Shown here: positions 10,491 to 28,242 of the stretch, piece after piece | Position numbering within the stretch: the stretch's first letter is position 1 | Layout of the letters: each line of letters begins with the position of its first letter | Assembly (NCBI RefSeq): GCF_000980815.1 | Contig: NZ_CP011311.1 | Span: 2,256,773 to 2,320,772, forward strand | Reading direction: 5' to 3' | Length of the DNA stretch: 64,000 nt | From: Corynebacterium camporealensis | GTDB lineage: Bacteria > Actinomycetota > Actinomycetes > Mycobacteriales > Mycobacteriaceae | The notes under the pieces: model-generated | What the model was told of the DNA's origin: nothing | The model's input: the letters and a program-made list of their open reading frames with translations, nothing else | The model's database searches: none | Translations under genes and position numbers: made by a program

Positions 10491-12212
10491 TTAGCGCAGG
10501 TAATCATAGGGATCTGCCAACAATGTAAGGGTGCGCCCCTCAGTCAGGGAAAATTTAATGTTTTCCCAGAAACGCCCGGCTGTGAGCGGATCCCGATAGC
10601 TGGCGAACAGCTCCTGGAACTGCGGTTGCTGCAATGCCTCGCGCGCAGCTTCCACCTTGTCATCATCGACCCAGGCCGGAATATCGTCCGGATCGGTACC
10701 GGAATCGGCGTACCACCACTCGATTGGCAAGAACTTATCGTGACCAATACGACCGTCCTCCAGGCGCGGCTGACGCGCTGCCATCGGCGTGGCCAGACCA
10801 ATCGGATCCAGCACGCGCACATTCAGAGGTGCGTTCATCGATGTCATACCGAGGTTCATGAAGTACAGCGTCGGCGGTTCAGTCGTTCCTTCCGCAGGCT
10901 TGCTGGTCCACCAGTTGAAGGTCTTCGGCTCCTCGTTTTCGAGGTAACGGGTAGCAAAAGCATCGCCAGCGTCAAGCTTCTCGACGGCCTCCGGGTATCC
11001 ATTCATGCTCAGTGCAGGGAGGAAGTCCTCAGCAGTCTTCGGGGCATCGCCTTCTTCGCGGAAAGTAATTTCCGTCCAGAAGTCGCGTTCATCGACCACT
11101 GCAAGTTCCTGGTCGTAGTCCTGGTCCTCATAAGGAGAAGAAAACAGCACAACGGCCACAGCCCAAACTGCACAGAATGCGGAAGCCACCGCAGTAATCC
11201 AGTTGCGCCACGGCAGCACAAAGAAAGGCAGCAGGATGGCGAATAGCGGAAGCAACAGCATGCGACCGTGCATGAAGTCACCGCCGACGCGCAGGACGTA
11301 GAGGGTATGCAGCACACCTGCACCGATGAGCAGGTAGGTCACCGTCGGCATGCTGCGCAGCTTCTGCGGTACGACCCACATGCCAGCGGCCACCAATGCA
11401 ATCAGCGGCAGATACAGCGCGTAAGGCTGCACCAAGTCCACCAGGTAGTTCCAGCCGGAGCCCCAAGCGCTCTCCGATGCCGATTTCGCCACCGCCGTGT
11501 GCGGTGTTAGCAGGCCGTAGTAGCCCATACGGAAGATTTGGTAGGCCAGCGGCACCGGCAGAGCGGCACCGAAAATACCGAGCCACTGCCGCCAATTGCG
11601 GTGAGCGGCCAGCAGCAGTATGCCGGTCAGCCCGCCATACAAAGCGAGTTCTGGGCGCACCAGCCAGGACAGCCCGGCCCAGAAGGCCAGGATGTAAGGA
11701 CTCCAATCGGTGCTATAGCGGTTGCTATCGCCCCAGCGCAGCAGCAACAGCCACAGCATCGCCAGGTAGAAGATCGACAGGCCCCACTCCAGACCGGAGG
11801 TAAAAAAGTCGCGGGCGGGCGAAATAGCAATGTAGACCAGTGCACCGGCTGGCAGCACAATATGGCCGCGGCCCAGGCGGGTTGCAGTCGCCCAGGTGCC
11901 AACAACTAATGCGGCGACAGAAAGCAGAAGGCCTAACCAAATGGCAATGCCTTCGAGCGGAGCGCCCGTAATCACGCGGACGATGTAGATGAGGTACTGC
12001 CACAGCGTCGAAGTGTTTGCCTCGACGCGCTCGCCCACATTGAAAACCGGGCCGTTGCCGGCTTCTAAGTTGCGGACAGTACGCAGGACAATGAGGCCAT
12101 CATCCGACATCCAGCGGCGGGTGAAACCACCCCAAAACGCCAGAACACCGATAACAATGACGCTTCCTAGCGCGACGCGCTGCTGCGTAATCTTGTTATC
12201 GGTGTTAAACAC
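10491..12212 (-). CDS. aftB: AftB terminal arabinofuranosyltransferase
   Basis: AftB adds the terminal beta-1,2 arabinofuranose residues of arabinogalactan, which carry the mycolates, using decaprenyl-phosphoarabinose outside the membrane. It is a GT-C enzyme. The acidic motif DDGLIVLRTVRNLEAGNGP sits in the first periplasmic loop (about residues 37-55) and is followed by about nine hydrophobic segments and a C-terminal extracytoplasmic domain. The 573-residue length is somewhat short for the family. The GTG start lies 31 bases past the ubiA stop, and no Shine-Dalgarno is visible, so coupling to ubiA is likely. Its neighbours cmt, ubiA, PAP2 and glfT2 match the conserved Rv3804c-Rv3808c order. 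Confidence 0.92.
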   Translation of the reverse strand: MFNTDNKITQQRVALGSVIVIGVLAFWGGFTRRWMSDDGLIVLRTVRNLEAGNGPVFNVGERVEANTSTLWQYLIYIVRVITGAPLEGIAIWLGLLLSVAALVVGTWATATRLGRGHIVLPAGALVYIAISPARDFFTSGLEWGLSIFYLAMLWLLLLRWGDSNRYSTDWSPYILAFWAGLSWLVRPELALYGGLTGILLLAAHRNWRQWLGIFGAALPVPLAYQIFRMGYYGLLTPHTAVAKSASESAWGSGWNYLVDLVQPYALYLPLIALVAAGMWVVPQKLRSMPTVTYLLIGAGVLHTLYVLRVGGDFMHGRMLLLPLFAILLPFFVLPWRNWITAVASAFCAVWAVAVVLFSSPYEDQDYDQELAVVDERDFWTEITFREEGDAPKTAEDFLPALSMNGYPEAVEKLDAGDAFATRYLENEEPKTFNWWTSKPAEGTTEPPTLYFMNLGMTSMNAPLNVRVLDPIGLATPMAARQPRLEDGRIGHDKFLPIEWWYADSGTDPDDIPAWVDDDKVEAAREALQQPQFQELFASYRDPLTAGRFWENIKFSLTEGRTLTLLADPYDYLR

Positions 12213-12243
12213 GAGACACGAGTCTACAGTTTCGAGGGTCTAA

Positions 12244-13239
12244 CTACAACGCAGGGATGATGTAGACAGCCATAGCGATACACGCCAGCCATGCCAGGGC
12301 GAGAATCTGCAGGACACGGTCCTCTAGTGCGATTTCATCCGGTGCGCCACCATGACCGCGGTCGACGTCAGCGGCATAGCGCAGAATCGCAATGGTAAAC
12401 GGAACCATGGAGACCTGGTACCAAACAGCCGCGGCACCAACAGCAGAGTTGGACAGCTCAAAGCCCCACAGCGAATACGACATCACCACGGCCGTAGCGG
12501 CCAGAGTCCAGACGAAACGCAAGTAGGTCGGGGTGTAGCCCTCCAGGGACTTACGAATTTTCGCGCCGGTGCGCTCTGCCAGGAGGATCTCCGAGTAGCG
12601 CTTACCGGAAGCCATAAACAGCGAACCAAAGGCTGCCACCAGCAAGAACCACTGGGACAGCTCAATGCCTGCAGCGACACCGCCGGCCATCGTACGCAGC
12701 ATAAAGCCAGAAGACACCAGTCCGATATCAATCACTGGCAGGTGCTTCCAGCCGAAGCAGTAGCCCAACTGCAGCGCAATGTAGACGGCCATCACGATAG
12801 CCAGCGAGACACCGTCGGTAGCCAGGAAGGACAGACCAATCGACGCCACAATGAGCGCCACAGTCATGGCATAGGCCAAGCCCACCGGCAGCACGCCTGC
12901 GGCAATCGGGCGGAAGCGCTTGGTCGGGTGCTCCCGGTCGGCCTCAACGTCCTTGGCATCGTTGATCAGGTAGATCGAGGACGCGCCAAGGCAGAAGACG
13001 ATAAACGCCAGCAGGACGTCGAGAAGCACTCGGCTGTGGAAGAGCGCATCAGCACCCGCAGCTGCCGGAGCAGCCAGCACGAGGACGTTTTTGACCCACT
13101 GCTTCGGGCGCAGCGCCTTGACCATGCCATCGGCGAGGTTCTTCGGTGGCTTGCGCTTGCGACCGGTGTCAATACCGGACGTGTGAGGTTCGGAGTGGAA
13201 GACGCGTTGGCTACCGTCGTCTGGTCTCAGATCGCTCAT
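12244..13239 (-). CDS. ubiA: Decaprenyl-phosphate phosphoribosyltransferase (UbiA family, Rv3806c type)
   Basis: Transfers phosphoribose to decaprenyl phosphate, the first committed step toward the arabinan donor DPA. The UbiA prenyltransferase fold is shown by the motif LINDAKDVEADREHP (NDxxDxxxD, two metal-binding acids) and about eight to nine membrane segments. The ATG at 13239 is supported by AAAGGAAG 6 bases upstream; an upstream in-frame start would run into the PAP2 gene. It overlaps the PAP2 stop by 4 bases (ATGA), so the two consecutive enzymes of the pathway are translationally coupled. The protein is 331 residues. Confidence 0.93.
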   Translation of the reverse strand: MSDLRPDDGSQRVFHSEPHTSGIDTGRKRKPPKNLADGMVKALRPKQWVKNVLVLAAPAAAGADALFHSRVLLDVLLAFIVFCLGASSIYLINDAKDVEADREHPTKRFRPIAAGVLPVGLAYAMTVALIVASIGLSFLATDGVSLAIVMAVYIALQLGYCFGWKHLPVIDIGLVSSGFMLRTMAGGVAAGIELSQWFLLVAAFGSLFMASGKRYSEILLAERTGAKIRKSLEGYTPTYLRFVWTLAATAVVMSYSLWGFELSNSAVGAAAVWYQVSMVPFTIAILRYAADVDRGHGGAPDEIALEDRVLQILALAWLACIAMAVYIIPAL

Positions 13240-21014: not shown

Positions 21015-21379
21015 CGTTTACGCATCCGCCAGGCGGTACCGCTGCTTCGGGCTACGCAGTGGCTCGTCGTATCGCCTCCCCAGAACCACGCCGCCAGAAA
21101 CTGATTACGTGAGCCAGTTACTCGAAAATTTCCCAGGCTATCCCGAGTCGCTGGACCGAATAGGCCACCAGGATTCACTACTTCCAATCGGTCCGCATAT
21201 TCCGAGACACAGCCTGCACGGTCTGATCAACCAGTAACCTGGAATAAAATAGAACACCCCACTAACTCCACACACAACATCACATGTACTGCGGTGTTGA
21301 AGGTGTTTAGTGAGGTGTTCGCTGTGGTGTTGAGGGCGGCATCGTCAAGCGTGTGCTCTGCCTGCCCTCAGGCCACTGC
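21015..21379. other. 365-bp region without a supported gene
   Basis: No reading frame here resembles a protein. The only clear structure is a long inverted repeat at 21252-21320, listed separately. The AT content rises toward its right half. It may hold degraded DNA between the iclR gene and the convergent monooxygenase gene. Confidence 0.6.
21252..21320. repeat. 14-bp inverted repeat with a 41-nt loop
   Basis: GAACACCCCACTAA (21252-21265) pairs with TTAGTGAGGTGTTC (21307-21320), 13 of 14 positions. GGTGTT recurs several times between and after the arms. It sits between the converging iclR and monooxygenase genes, so a bidirectional terminator or the relic of a small element are both possible. 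Confidence 0.5.
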
Positions 21380-25648: not shown

Positions 25649-25782
25649 AAACAACCTAAAACAACTCGAAACAACTACAAACAACCATTTTAACCTGCGT
25701 ATACGCTAAATCTGCCCCACAGAAACCATCCGAGTTGTTTTGAGGTTGTTTTTGAAATCGCTTTTATTTTATTGCAAACAAC
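25649..25782. repeat. Upstream phased AAACAAC array of the Schlafen/AlbA_2 gene
   Basis: AAACAAC occurs at 25649, 25659, 25669 and 25679, exactly every 10 bp, so all copies face one side of the helix. The reverse form GTTGTTT follows at 25734 and 25745 (11 bp apart). One more AAACAAC is at 25776-25782, inside the promoter of the next gene. The pattern looks like an operator for cooperative binding, most likely by the product of the adjacent gene. A near-identical block lies after that gene. Confidence 0.8.
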
Positions 25783-25802
25783 TTCTTGGGGTTATGTAGA
25801 CT
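25772..25802 (+). promoter_or_regulatory. Promoter of the Schlafen/AlbA_2 gene
   Basis: A -35 like TTGCAA (25772-25777) is followed by TATGTAGACT (25793-25802), which offers -10 choices TATGTA or TAGACT. With TAGACT the transcript would start at or near the ATG (25810); no Shine-Dalgarno is present. An AAACAAC unit overlaps the -35/spacer, so binding there should repress. Confidence 0.5.
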
Positions 25803-25809
25803 CACAAGT

Positions 25810-27540
25810 ATGATTCCCGAGCCCCCATGGCCGCTGCCTGCCCACATCAAGGAGGCACTAGCTTCCATTAGCGCTGGCTCCACTGCCGATGCCGTGGAGT
25901 CTGCTGTCTTGGAGTTCAAAGAAGACCGCTCGCAGAGTTCTCATACGGCGAAGGGAAATCCTAAAGCGGAATTAACCGAAAAGCTCATCGACGAGGCAAT
26001 ATGCTTCGCCAACGCTGATGGTGGAACTGGATACATCATCATTGGTGTGAGCGATAAAACACCCGGCCGCCCTGCCTTCACTGGCACGCAATTCGACACT
26101 GATTACATCGAAGACAAGGTCTTCAAAGGAACCAGGCCAAACTTGCACGTAGAGGCTACAGAATGCATCTACAACGAGGTTCGACTGGTCATCGTCAGGG
26201 TCCCTGAGGGAAGAACCCTATATACCCGAACACAGGGACAAGCTAAACGCAGGATCGGCACACACTGCAAAGCATTAACAGAAGAAGAGCGCCAAGCCAT
26301 TATCTCTACACGCGCTAATACTGACTTCTCTAACCGGACCTCTACTCGCAAAATCGAAGATATTGAGCTTTCTTCCCTCTCCGAGGCACGCCGCCTTTTG
26401 CGAAGCAAACGCGAACGCTCCGGCGAAGGCAATCACGTCCCCGACACAACCCCAGGATTATTACGTGAGCTGGGACTAGTTACTTTCGATGGCCAGCTCA
26501 AGCGTGCAGGAGAGATTCTTCTACTTCCGCTCGAAATTCCCGAAGTGAGTATCCGTCACCTCTGGCGTGCAATGCCGGGTTCTGAGCCTAAAGTCACAGA
26601 ATTTAGCGAGCCCATCATTGCCGCACTCCCTAGACTTCGGCGGCTCATCGCTGAGCGGAGCGATCAAGAAATTGATCGAGTACAGTTCTCAGATGGTCAA
26701 GAAGTACCGATTCCCCGATTCCCAGCCCAAGCAATTGATGAGGCTGTCACCAACGCAATTATCCACCGTGACTGGCAAATAACTCGGCCTATCGTTATTG
26801 ACCAATCGCCTCGAACTCTAAAGATTACTTCTCCAGGAGCACTTCCCCCTGGGGTGTCACCCCATCGGCTTCTAACCACTCAATCGATCCCACGCAATAA
26901 CCGCTTGATGGCCAGCATGCGTGCGCTTGGCCTTGCGGAAGAATCTTCGCGCGGCTTCGACCGCATGTGGTCCGCAATGATTAACTCCGGACGCAATGTC
27001 CCAACCGTCATTGCGGAAGACACCTACGTGGAGATCATCATGGCGGCAGGGCAGCCCGATACCAACTTCATTCGCGGACTTCACAACTTATCCCAGACCA
27101 AGGGCGCTGACGTTACTGGCAACGTCAATACTCTTATCGTCTTGTGGCACCTATGGCACTCTCCACTCATCACCTTTAACCAGGTAAAAGAACAAACCCA
27201 AACGTCGCCAATTGAAGTTGATGAACTCATGAATGTCTTGCAAGACTACGGCATTGTTGCCCCGGTACGCGACGCAAAGGAATGGGTTCTCACAGACGAA
27301 GTACGGAAAACCATGGGGATGGCCAATGCCGGAGAACTATACATAATCAGCGTTCAAGAATGGATTGAAGAAAAGCTCCATGCCGGGGAGCAGCTCCATG
27401 CTTCTGAGCTAGCTAAAGAAACTGGCCTCGGCCGAAAAGAAGTCACGGACATTTTGCGCCATCTGCGCACCCTAGGACGCGCGCAGATCGATCCCTCAGG
27501 CCCTAGTCGCGGCCCAAACACCAGGTGGATAACAACCTAA
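25810..27540 (+). CDS. Schlafen/AlbA_2 domain ATP-binding regulator
   Basis: The 576-residue protein has three parts. An N-terminal AlbA_2/Schlafen-like nucleic-acid-binding domain (about 25-165) shows VLEFKEDRS and ICFANADGGTGYIIIGV. A GHKL-type ATPase domain of the HATPase_c_4 kind (about 290-410) shows IDEAVTNAIIHRDW, LKITSPGALPPGV and GLAEESSRGFDRM. A C-terminal winged-helix region (about 440-575) follows. Members of this class are annotated as putative transcriptional regulators, and some sit in defence loci. Bracketing by two copies of a phased AAACAAC array, the last overlapping its own stop codon, points to autoregulation and possibly to acquisition as a unit. ATG 25810 is preferred over the 8-codon longer frame. 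Confidence 0.82.
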   Translation: MIPEPPWPLPAHIKEALASISAGSTADAVESAVLEFKEDRSQSSHTAKGNPKAELTEKLIDEAICFANADGGTGYIIIGVSDKTPGRPAFTGTQFDTDYIEDKVFKGTRPNLHVEATECIYNEVRLVIVRVPEGRTLYTRTQGQAKRRIGTHCKALTEEERQAIISTRANTDFSNRTSTRKIEDIELSSLSEARRLLRSKRERSGEGNHVPDTTPGLLRELGLVTFDGQLKRAGEILLLPLEIPEVSIRHLWRAMPGSEPKVTEFSEPIIAALPRLRRLIAERSDQEIDRVQFSDGQEVPIPRFPAQAIDEAVTNAIIHRDWQITRPIVIDQSPRTLKITSPGALPPGVSPHRLLTTQSIPRNNRLMASMRALGLAEESSRGFDRMWSAMINSGRNVPTVIAEDTYVEIIMAAGQPDTNFIRGLHNLSQTKGADVTGNVNTLIVLWHLWHSPLITFNQVKEQTQTSPIEVDELMNVLQDYGIVAPVRDAKEWVLTDEVRKTMGMANAGELYIISVQEWIEEKLHAGEQLHASELAKETGLGRKEVTDILRHLRTLGRAQIDPSGPSRGPNTRWITT

Positions 27541-27633
27541 AACAACTTGAAACAACTACAAACAACCACCTTGAGCTGCATAAACACCCCGCCACAGACC
27601 CCACATAAGCAGATAGTTGTTTATGAGTTGTTT
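27530..27633. repeat. Downstream copy of the phased AAACAAC array
   Basis: Units start at 27530 (TAACAAC, one mismatch), 27540, 27550 and 27560, again exactly 10 bp apart. GTTGTTT follows at 27616 and 27627, again 11 bp apart. The gap from the last forward to the first reverse unit is 56 bp here and 55 bp in the upstream array. Intervening bases partly match too. The first unit lies within the last codons and the second begins on the last base of the stop codon. The two arrays are direct repeats about 1.88 kb apart. Confidence 0.8.
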
Positions 27634-27780
27634 TACGCCACCGCCTACCGCTATCACTAGTGAATTCAGACATTCACGTGGCTCTCCTAAATAATAAATC
27701 CGCTCATTCCAAAATTAGGATTCACCACCAAACTTGGAAAATGGGAAAACCGAATCTACTCCACACTCCCTAACCTGCAA

Positions 27781-27801
27781 TTCCAACTTTGAAAGTTGGA
27801 A
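27781..27801. repeat. Perfect 21-bp palindrome
   Basis: TTCCAACTTT and AAAGTTGGAA are separated by one G. It resembles the AAACTTGGAA family clustered at 28160-28242, and AAACTTGGAAA also occurs at 27730-27740. Confidence 0.7.
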
Positions 27802-27983
27802 TTTCCGTGTGGAGCACCCCTATTGTCACCATGTTCCCTTACCAGCGGAGAAACAACCGCCAAGCTCGGTCTTGGAACGCGAGCAGCGATGCCAGTCCAC
27901 ACGCATTAAGAACCCTCGTAGCTCACACAAAAACCGATGAGGATGAGACTTAGGCAGGGAAATCCATATAGTCACGTGGCATA

Positions 27984-28064: not shown

Positions 28065-28159
28065 GCATTATCTAAATCAGGTACAAAGTAGATTTTCAGC
28101 GATAAACCTAAAGAACTCAGGTGTACCGCACCTAGCATCAACAACTGCCCCACAAAAGG

Positions 28160-28242
28160 AAACTCGGAATCAAAGTTTGGAAACTTGGAATTTTTCCCAG
28201 TTAAACTTGGAAATCCAAGTTTGATTACGAGTTTCCAAGTTT
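28160..28242. repeat. AAACTTGGA / TCCAAGTTT repeat cluster before the YbaK gene
   Basis: Units are AAACTCGGAA (28160), AAACTTGGAA (28181), the palindrome AAACTTGGA-AA-TCCAAGTTT (28203-28222) and TTTCCAAGTTT (28232-28242). The last ends 18 bases before the YbaK ATG. The cluster may be an operator for that gene or a footprint of an element. The protein that binds it is not evident. Confidence 0.65.

What the first reader, a model, noticed from the sequence alone, without database searches (positions are those of the whole stretch)
25649..27633. Schlafen/AlbA_2 regulator gene bracketed by two copies of the same phased repeat array
The same composite block occurs before and after the gene: four AAACAAC units spaced exactly 10 bp, a gap of 55 or 56 bp, then two GTTGTTT units 11 bp apart. 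Two conserved blocks 1.88 kb apart in direct orientation are hard to explain by chance. Possible readings are a self-contained cassette acquired by recombination between the repeats, or a two-operator loop formed by the encoded protein across its own gene. The gene type is found in some defence loci and the patch is AT-rich.
Basis: partly seen in the sequence, partly recalled or inferred. Interest (0 to 1): 0.85.

Follow-up and report, generated by a model that had tools for sequence, protein, structure and literature searches.

The report
Schlafen gene between two operator arrays
A bacterial Schlafen gene, a type linked in print to phage defence, sits between two direct copies of its own repeat array; this layout recurs in many Actinobacteria at unrelated sites, and some relatives keep one array with the gene gone, like the solo repeats that retrotransposons leave behind.

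Summary
Window 25650-25752 and 27531-27634 are direct copies (84/96) around a 576-aa gene: SLFN_AlbA_2, GHKL ATPase, two winged helices. In 242 Corynebacterium genomes, 37 of 63 orthologue loci pass a strict test for flanking direct repeats, against 2 of 457 neighbouring ORFs (one of the two itself an AlbA_2 gene). So do 6 of 13 sister-family loci and 7 of 36 genes sampled across the phylum (2 of those 7 doubtful); 11 of 20 relatives outside the genus pass a looser one.

In 40 of 52 loci the two copies match each other better than any other locus, while the motif changes between lineages. The 5' copy is followed by a -10-like box and an in-frame start (44 of 51); the 3' copy hardly ever (5 of 51). 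The loci fall into 27 neighbourhoods. Three species comparisons show two arrays against one at the same place. Orthologues without the C-terminal winged helix have no arrays.

Best reading: an LTR-like one-gene cassette whose terminal repeats double as operators. Precise excision (or its reverse) is shown by comparison; operator function is inferred; entry into new sites is unexplained. My literature searches found no description.

The parts
25650..25752 (+). 5' array (direct-repeat copy 1): four AAACAAC at 10-bp steps, core ..TTTAACCTGCG.., two GTTGTTT 11 bp apart
   Evidence: 84/96 identical to the 3' copy
25776..25782 (+). fifth AAACAAC unit, just upstream of the -10-like box, 5' side only
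   Evidence: a counterpart AAACAACTTCCTGGGGAAATG is seen in several relatives
25797..25802 (+). -10-like box TAGACT seven bases before the ATG (leaderless arrangement, inferred)
   Evidence: sequence; a TANNNT box plus in-frame start follows the 5' copy in 44 of 51 loci
25810..27540 (+). bacterial Schlafen gene, 576 aa from this ATG (open frame from TTG 25786): SLFN_AlbA_2, HATPase_c_4/GHKL, winged helix about 439-500, winged helix about 515-576
27531..27634 (+). 3' array (direct-repeat copy 2); begins inside the last codons

Best explanation
This is a one-gene, LTR-like cassette. Its gene encodes a bacterial Schlafen: an N-terminal Schlafen-type domain, a GHKL ATPase and two winged helices. 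Its terminal direct repeats are two copies of the array that the protein itself most likely binds. The 5' copy probably is the operator of a leaderless promoter; the 3' copy is a promoterless duplicate. Recombination between the copies removes the gene with one array and leaves a solo array; run backwards, a solo array can receive the cassette. Shown by comparison: two copies per genome that resemble each other, changing motifs between lineages, solo arrays at the same places, many different sites. Inferred: binding by the C-terminal winged helix, autorepression, homologous recombination as the agent of excision, phage defence as the payload. Unknown: how the cassette first enters a new site.
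For: Flanking direct repeats (score 45 or more) in 37 of 63 Corynebacterium orthologue loci, 6 of 13 sister-family loci and 9 of 13 chosen outside loci; by a looser test 11 of the 20 non-Corynebacterium loci printed; 7 of 36 HATPase_c_4 genes sampled across the phylum, 5 if a tRNA-end repeat and a short palindrome are set aside; control 2 of 457 neighbouring ORFs, one of them itself an AlbA_2 gene. In 40 of 52 loci the best partner of the 5' copy is that locus's own 3' copy. Motif classes differ by lineage. Solo array against full cassette: L114 against L096/L058, L121 against L057/L091, L120 against L103. 27 neighbourhood groups for 63 loci; a short gap instead of the cassette in seven genomes for L102. 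The 5' copy is followed by TANNNT plus an in-frame start in 44 of 51, the 3' copy by TANNNT plus any start in 5 of 51. C-terminal winged helix absent together with arrays. Wing RGR in 10 of 10 AATTGTT/GATATC-class proteins and in 0 of the other 44 listed with this domain, two origins on the tree.
Against: 26 of 63 orthologue loci fail the two-copy test: 7 lack arrays altogether, 2 are borderline (L082, L090), 17 have 5' array(s) only or a 3' remnant. All three solo-array comparisons belong to one protein clade and at most three sites; in L103 the gene is broken. No short target-site duplication: 5 of 52 share a 6-mer across the boundaries, 6.3 expected. No recombinase domain in Pfam, and only distant plasmid and phage matches. 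Loss of arrays with the C-terminal domain is a single event. The two other HATPase_c_4 genes of this genome have no two-sided repeat. L051 may score through a 151-bp duplicated host segment rather than through its arrays.
Confidence: 0.6

Rival explanations
1. Regulatory pair only. Both arrays are kept because the protein must bind on both sides of its gene (loop or roadblock); the copies are kept alike by gene conversion, and the gene spreads like any other accessory gene.
For: The 5' array abuts a -10-like box; motif and C-terminal winged helix change together; 10-bp phasing suits cooperative binding on one face of DNA (inference).
Against: 11 open orthologue genes have only 5' array(s), one of them with a 3' remnant; the copies agree over spacers too (for example L080 166/168, L088 108/108); solo arrays remain where the gene is gone; both arrays persist in L105, where the gene is destroyed.
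Confidence: 0.2
2. Relics of tandem duplication. Array-gene units duplicate in tandem and lose the second gene, leaving array-gene-array; no mobility is needed.
For: Tandem double 5' arrays (L050, L060, L081, L097, L099); L107 has a solo array after what reads as a gene 3' end.
Against: The repeat ends sharply, with no homology beyond it (mean 2.6 matches per 10 bases leftward, 2.4 rightward, 51 loci); does not explain 27 neighbourhoods; no intact tandem pair was seen in the loci read.
Confidence: 0.1
3. A true transposable element whose Schlafen/GHKL protein acts at the arrays as its own recombination factor.
For: Ends bound by the only encoded protein (inferred); many sites; presence in Rothia, Actinomyces relatives and Planctomycetota MAGs; three loci with 23-151-bp host duplications around the element.
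Against: No recombinase or transposase domain in Pfam; no constant target duplication; in the three genomes with two orthologues (G008, G218, G246) the copies belong to different branches, not to a recent burst.
Confidence: 0.07

Closest known systems
Bacterial Schlafens: Schlafen-family RNase fused to a minimal histidine kinase and wHTH (PMC12839542, passages seen; it cites a preprint on anti-phage defence that is not held)
   Same: Same domain order: SLFN_AlbA_2, GHKL ATPase, winged helix
   Different: Described there as BREX-linked backup effectors; the passages seen mention no flanking arrays. BREX genes were not searched for here; the neighbours listed do not read as BREX genes by eye
C. 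diphtheriae DIP2311 (PDB 3LMM)
   Different: 24% identical over the aligned part; sister-family repeats are mostly AGATTAG-type
LTR retrotransposons and solo LTRs (recalled)
   Same: Direct terminal repeats, alike within one element; a single repeat left behind
   Different: No reverse transcriptase found, no constant target duplication, repeats made of protein-site-like units
Integron cassettes and IS26 translocatable units (recalled)
   Same: Gene plus one recombination site as the unit that comes and goes
   Different: No integrase or transposase domain found; the repeat is noncoding and lies at the gene's own promoter

Membership tests
Bacterial Schlafen (SLFN-GHKL-wHTH) | SLFN_AlbA_2 domain above the Pfam cut-off | tested here: met
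Bacterial Schlafen (SLFN-GHKL-wHTH) | GHKL ATPase and C-terminal winged helix | tested here: met
   HATPase_c_4 46.7 bits, cut-off 26; GHKL folds over 241-416, winged helices at 431-503 and 511-576
Bacterial Schlafen (SLFN-GHKL-wHTH) | Acidic nuclease residues of Schlafens | tested here: inconclusive
   E30 invariant and D82 nearly invariant in 26 sequences, E or D at 35; the Asp motif of the sister family aligns with SLFN11; catalytic assignment recalled, not superposed
Bacterial Schlafen (SLFN-GHKL-wHTH) | Anti-phage activity by RNA cleavage | not testable with these tools
Known defence system in PADLOC | Strong match to a defence model over most of the model | tested here: not met
   Only weak partial matches: pAgo 2.1e-9, two Aga_SIR2 models 3.3e-7 and 2.4e-6, PDC-S50 3.9e-4, PDC-S69 4e-3
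Insertion sequence or transposon | Encoded transposase or recombinase | tested here: not met
   Only SLFN_AlbA_2 and HATPase_c_4 in Pfam
Insertion sequence or transposon | Short target-site duplication | tested here: not met
   6-mers shared at boundaries in 5 of 52 loci, expected 6.3
LTR-like element (structure only) | Direct terminal repeats, alike within one element | tested here: met
LTR-like element (structure only) | Solo repeats at places occupied in relatives | tested here: met
   three species comparisons

The most novel reading that the evidence does not exclude
A new class of prokaryotic mobile unit: a single Schlafen-type gene whose own operator arrays serve as direct terminal repeats, with the protein's C-terminal winged helix and the terminal repeats changing specificity together, spreading across Actinomycetota and beyond, integrating and excising at arrays and leaving solo arrays behind.
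Probability: 0.3. Interest if true: 0.9.

Novelty: new variant of a known kind. Interest (0 to 1): 0.72.

Why it matters
Bacterial Schlafens are being drawn into the defence repertoire, but how stand-alone copies spread, and how they are kept quiet, is not described in what I could read. If the arrays are both operator and terminal repeat, the same feature would explain silencing, spread and clean loss of a potentially costly nuclease gene. It would also give a sequence signature (private phased array on both sides, or a solo array) for finding active and lost copies in any genome, and a ready system to study how a DNA-reading domain and its site change together.

Tried and rejected
Empty site of the window's own cassette: the left neighbour (aldehyde dehydrogenase) has relatives at up to 83% identity over its length; in the six that I compared the right flank of the cassette was not found, so the insertion point in this genome could not be dated. 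Short target-site duplications: none above expectation. Longer host duplications: 28 bp (L038), 151 bp (L051), 23 bp (L083), above the 99% level of cross-locus controls; three of 52 loci, cause not settled. L092 looks like an insertion that cuts off the last codons of its left neighbour compared with L056, but a later deletion between short repeats explains it as well, so I do not use it as proof. L077 has relatives without the cassette, but a second, unexplained stretch of about 1 kb beside it blurs the boundary. A search for relatives of the L080 site gave no usable empty site. Plasmid and phage collections: only distant or partial matches. Viral contigs were not scanned. Idea that the 3' array is the next gene's promoter: rejected as a general rule. 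Idea that two-sided repeats occur only in Corynebacterium: rejected. Of the seven phylum-sample hits, L240's repeat ends in a tRNA gene and L232's is a 43-base palindrome, so these two may be something else. The VIA-align table lists no recombinase fold, which excludes nothing. One search failed while writing a file and on a record name; both were repeated with the same method.

Sampling limits: one genome per species; of 64 orthologue loci fetched, L059 was dropped for lack of flank; broken genes are included in the 63. One search kept the best 80 of 277 relatives; of the 65 loci read, I printed 23 (3 of them Corynebacterium); the 13 outside loci were picked by me from these; L210-L223 were not looked at. 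The neighbour-ORF control dropped ORFs under 900 bases and those within 800 bases of the gene, and its windows were shorter than those. Class counts cover 60 open, near-full-length proteins; the tree used 55 of them, leaving out five near-copies.

Full report
What is in the window. Two direct copies of a composite array flank one gene: 25650-25752 and 27531-27634, 84 of 96 aligned positions identical. The units stand 10 bp apart on the left side and 11 bp apart on the right side of each copy. The first copy has four exact AAACAAC units, the second three exact and one with a mismatch. The double-unit pattern occurs nowhere else in the 2.45-Mb genome. The gene reads from ATG 25810 to 27540; a -10-like TAGACT lies seven bases before that ATG, so the message is probably leaderless (inference).

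The layout recurs. A protein search of 242 Corynebacterium genomes matched 88 at E 1e-12. Of 63 orthologue loci with enough flank (64 fetched), 37 have an up/down direct repeat of score 45 or more; of 13 sister-family loci 6, with five more showing weaker repeats above their shuffles (L071, L073, L074, L129, L136). Of the 20 non-Corynebacterium loci printed, 11 have repeats above shuffles, among them Rothia nasimurium 160/167, a Trueperella MAG 159/165, Actinomyces bowdenii 162/174 and two Planctomycetota MAGs (66/69, 58/72); L199 among them may be something else. In a phylum-wide sample of HATPase_c_4 genes (45 of 246 genomes had one) I tested 36 different genes and found 7 with score 45 or more (L232, L233, L240, L244, L246, L258, L269). 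L240's repeat ends in a tRNA gene and L232's is a short palindrome, so 5 are array-like or long. This is a lower rate than among close relatives, and the two other HATPase_c_4 genes of the window's own genome have no two-sided repeat. The control, neighbouring ORFs of the same loci, gave 2 of 457, and one of the two is itself an AlbA_2/HATPase_c_4 gene.

Where it is missing. 26 of the 63 orthologue loci fail the test: 7 (L065-L070, L076) have no array on either side, 2 are borderline (L082, L090), and 17 have 5' array(s) only or a 3' remnant; of these 17, 11 code for an open, near-full-length protein in the listing.

The two copies resemble each other. In 40 of the 52 loci with repeats the best partner of the 5' copy is that locus's own 3' copy; in most of the 12 exceptions the better partner belongs to a close relative. 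L051 in this count may score through a duplicated host segment, though arrays are visible on both sides. Copies agree over spacers as well as units (L088 108/108, L077 132/133, L080 166/168), while the motif changes between lineages: GTTGTTT, AATTGTT, GATATCTTT, TTTCGAC, GTTTCCG, AAGAAC. The repeat ends sharply: beyond it matches fall to 2.6 per 10 bases leftward and 2.4 rightward. Direct duplication or recombination must therefore act on the pair.

5' and 3' copies are not equal. After the 5' copy comes TANNNT plus a start codon in frame in 44 of 51 loci; after the 3' copy TANNNT plus any start codon in 5 of 51. The 3' copy is thus not usually a promoter.

Solo arrays. At one site C. tuscaniense (L096/L169) and C. 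meitnerae (L058/L170) have gene and two arrays, and G296 (L114) has a single 124-bp array. Its left side continues into the left flank of L096 (558/600) and its right side into the right flank (546/597); the full form spans 2019 bp. L121 against L057/L091 and L120 against L103 show the same; in L103 the gene itself is broken. All three comparisons belong to one protein clade, and the first and third may go back to one ancestral site beside the same neighbour gene. Since L114 is nearer to L096 than either is to L058, loss is the simpler direction there. Other arrays without the gene were seen at further places (for example L107, L108, L113, L117), some with gene remnants, some possibly chance (L119 lies in ribosomal RNA sequence, as I read it). 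L105 keeps both arrays (155/168) around a gene broken by what reads as a transposase gene.

Different places. The loci form 27 neighbourhood groups (63 loci with at least four neighbours), the largest with 21 members from regions where links chain; the sister family has 11 groups for 13 loci. For L102, whose gene is broken, seven genomes show the same flanks with 73-157 bp unaligned between them and no cassette. Rothia nasimurium branches inside a clade of 20 otherwise made of Corynebacterium loci (100/100).

Who reads the array. Six array-less open proteins of one group (L065-L070) lack the last roughly 75 residues, the second winged helix, and a seventh, L076, stops at the same point; this is one event. 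Within the rest the wing sequence is RGR in 10 of 10 AATTGTT/GATATC-class proteins and in 0 of the 44 others listed (33 P, 7 S, 3 A, 1 L). The tree needs two origins of that class, the 9-row clade and L097, whose place is unsure because of its long branch. This points to the C-terminal winged helix but does not prove it.

How it most likely works. Steps shown by comparison: pairs of arrays, alike within genomes; solo arrays; many sites. Steps inferred: the protein binds its array, represses its own leaderless promoter, and is released or activated on infection; recombination between the arrays removes the cassette. Not known: the route into a new site. There is no short target duplication.

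Literature. Searches of the open-access library for Schlafen/AlbA_2 with mobility, COG2865/HATPase_c_4, AAA-4 with direct repeats, prokaryotic Schlafen defence, Corynebacterium single-gene elements, bacterial Schlafens, Schlafen with direct repeats, DIP2311 and LTR-like bacterial elements (listings only, plus passages of two papers) gave no description of this arrangement. Subscription papers and preprints are mostly not held, so it may still be in print.

Noticed in passing
window 27730-27805 and 28158-28242: A second family of AAACTTGGAA/TTCCAAGTTT units just right of the cassette, without a gene; 4 of the 6 occurrences of AAACTTGGAA in the genome lie here. Possibly orphan arrays of another lost gene.
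   Followed up: partly
window 21083-21208 (-): Short HATPase_c_4 remnant (28.3 bits, 71-aa frame) about 4.5 kb left of the cassette.
   Followed up: no
L261 and L262 (same genome, outside the window): Two further HATPase_c_4 genes without two-sided repeats, each with its own upstream repeats, for example CGTTTCATACTT before L262.
   Followed up: partly
L121:4760-5110: Two solo arrays of different motif in tandem: a CGATAG/ATCGAGCTATCGA type and the AAACAAC type, both with a TGACCTGC core.
   Followed up: partly
L063:4690-6399 (-): Another AlbA_2/HATPase_c_4 gene near an orthologue, flanked by its own direct repeats, score 199.
   Followed up: partly
L041, oriented 11637-12840: A gene that reads as an AAA-type ATPase, flanked by direct repeats, score 121.
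   Followed up: no
L240: A HATPase_c_4 gene flanked by a repeat that ends in a tRNA-SeC gene, like the att sites of integrative elements.
   Followed up: no
arrays of several relatives: A core TGACCTGC or TGAGCTGC in the middle and CCTGGGGAAATG at the right end stay alike while the repeat units change.
   Followed up: no
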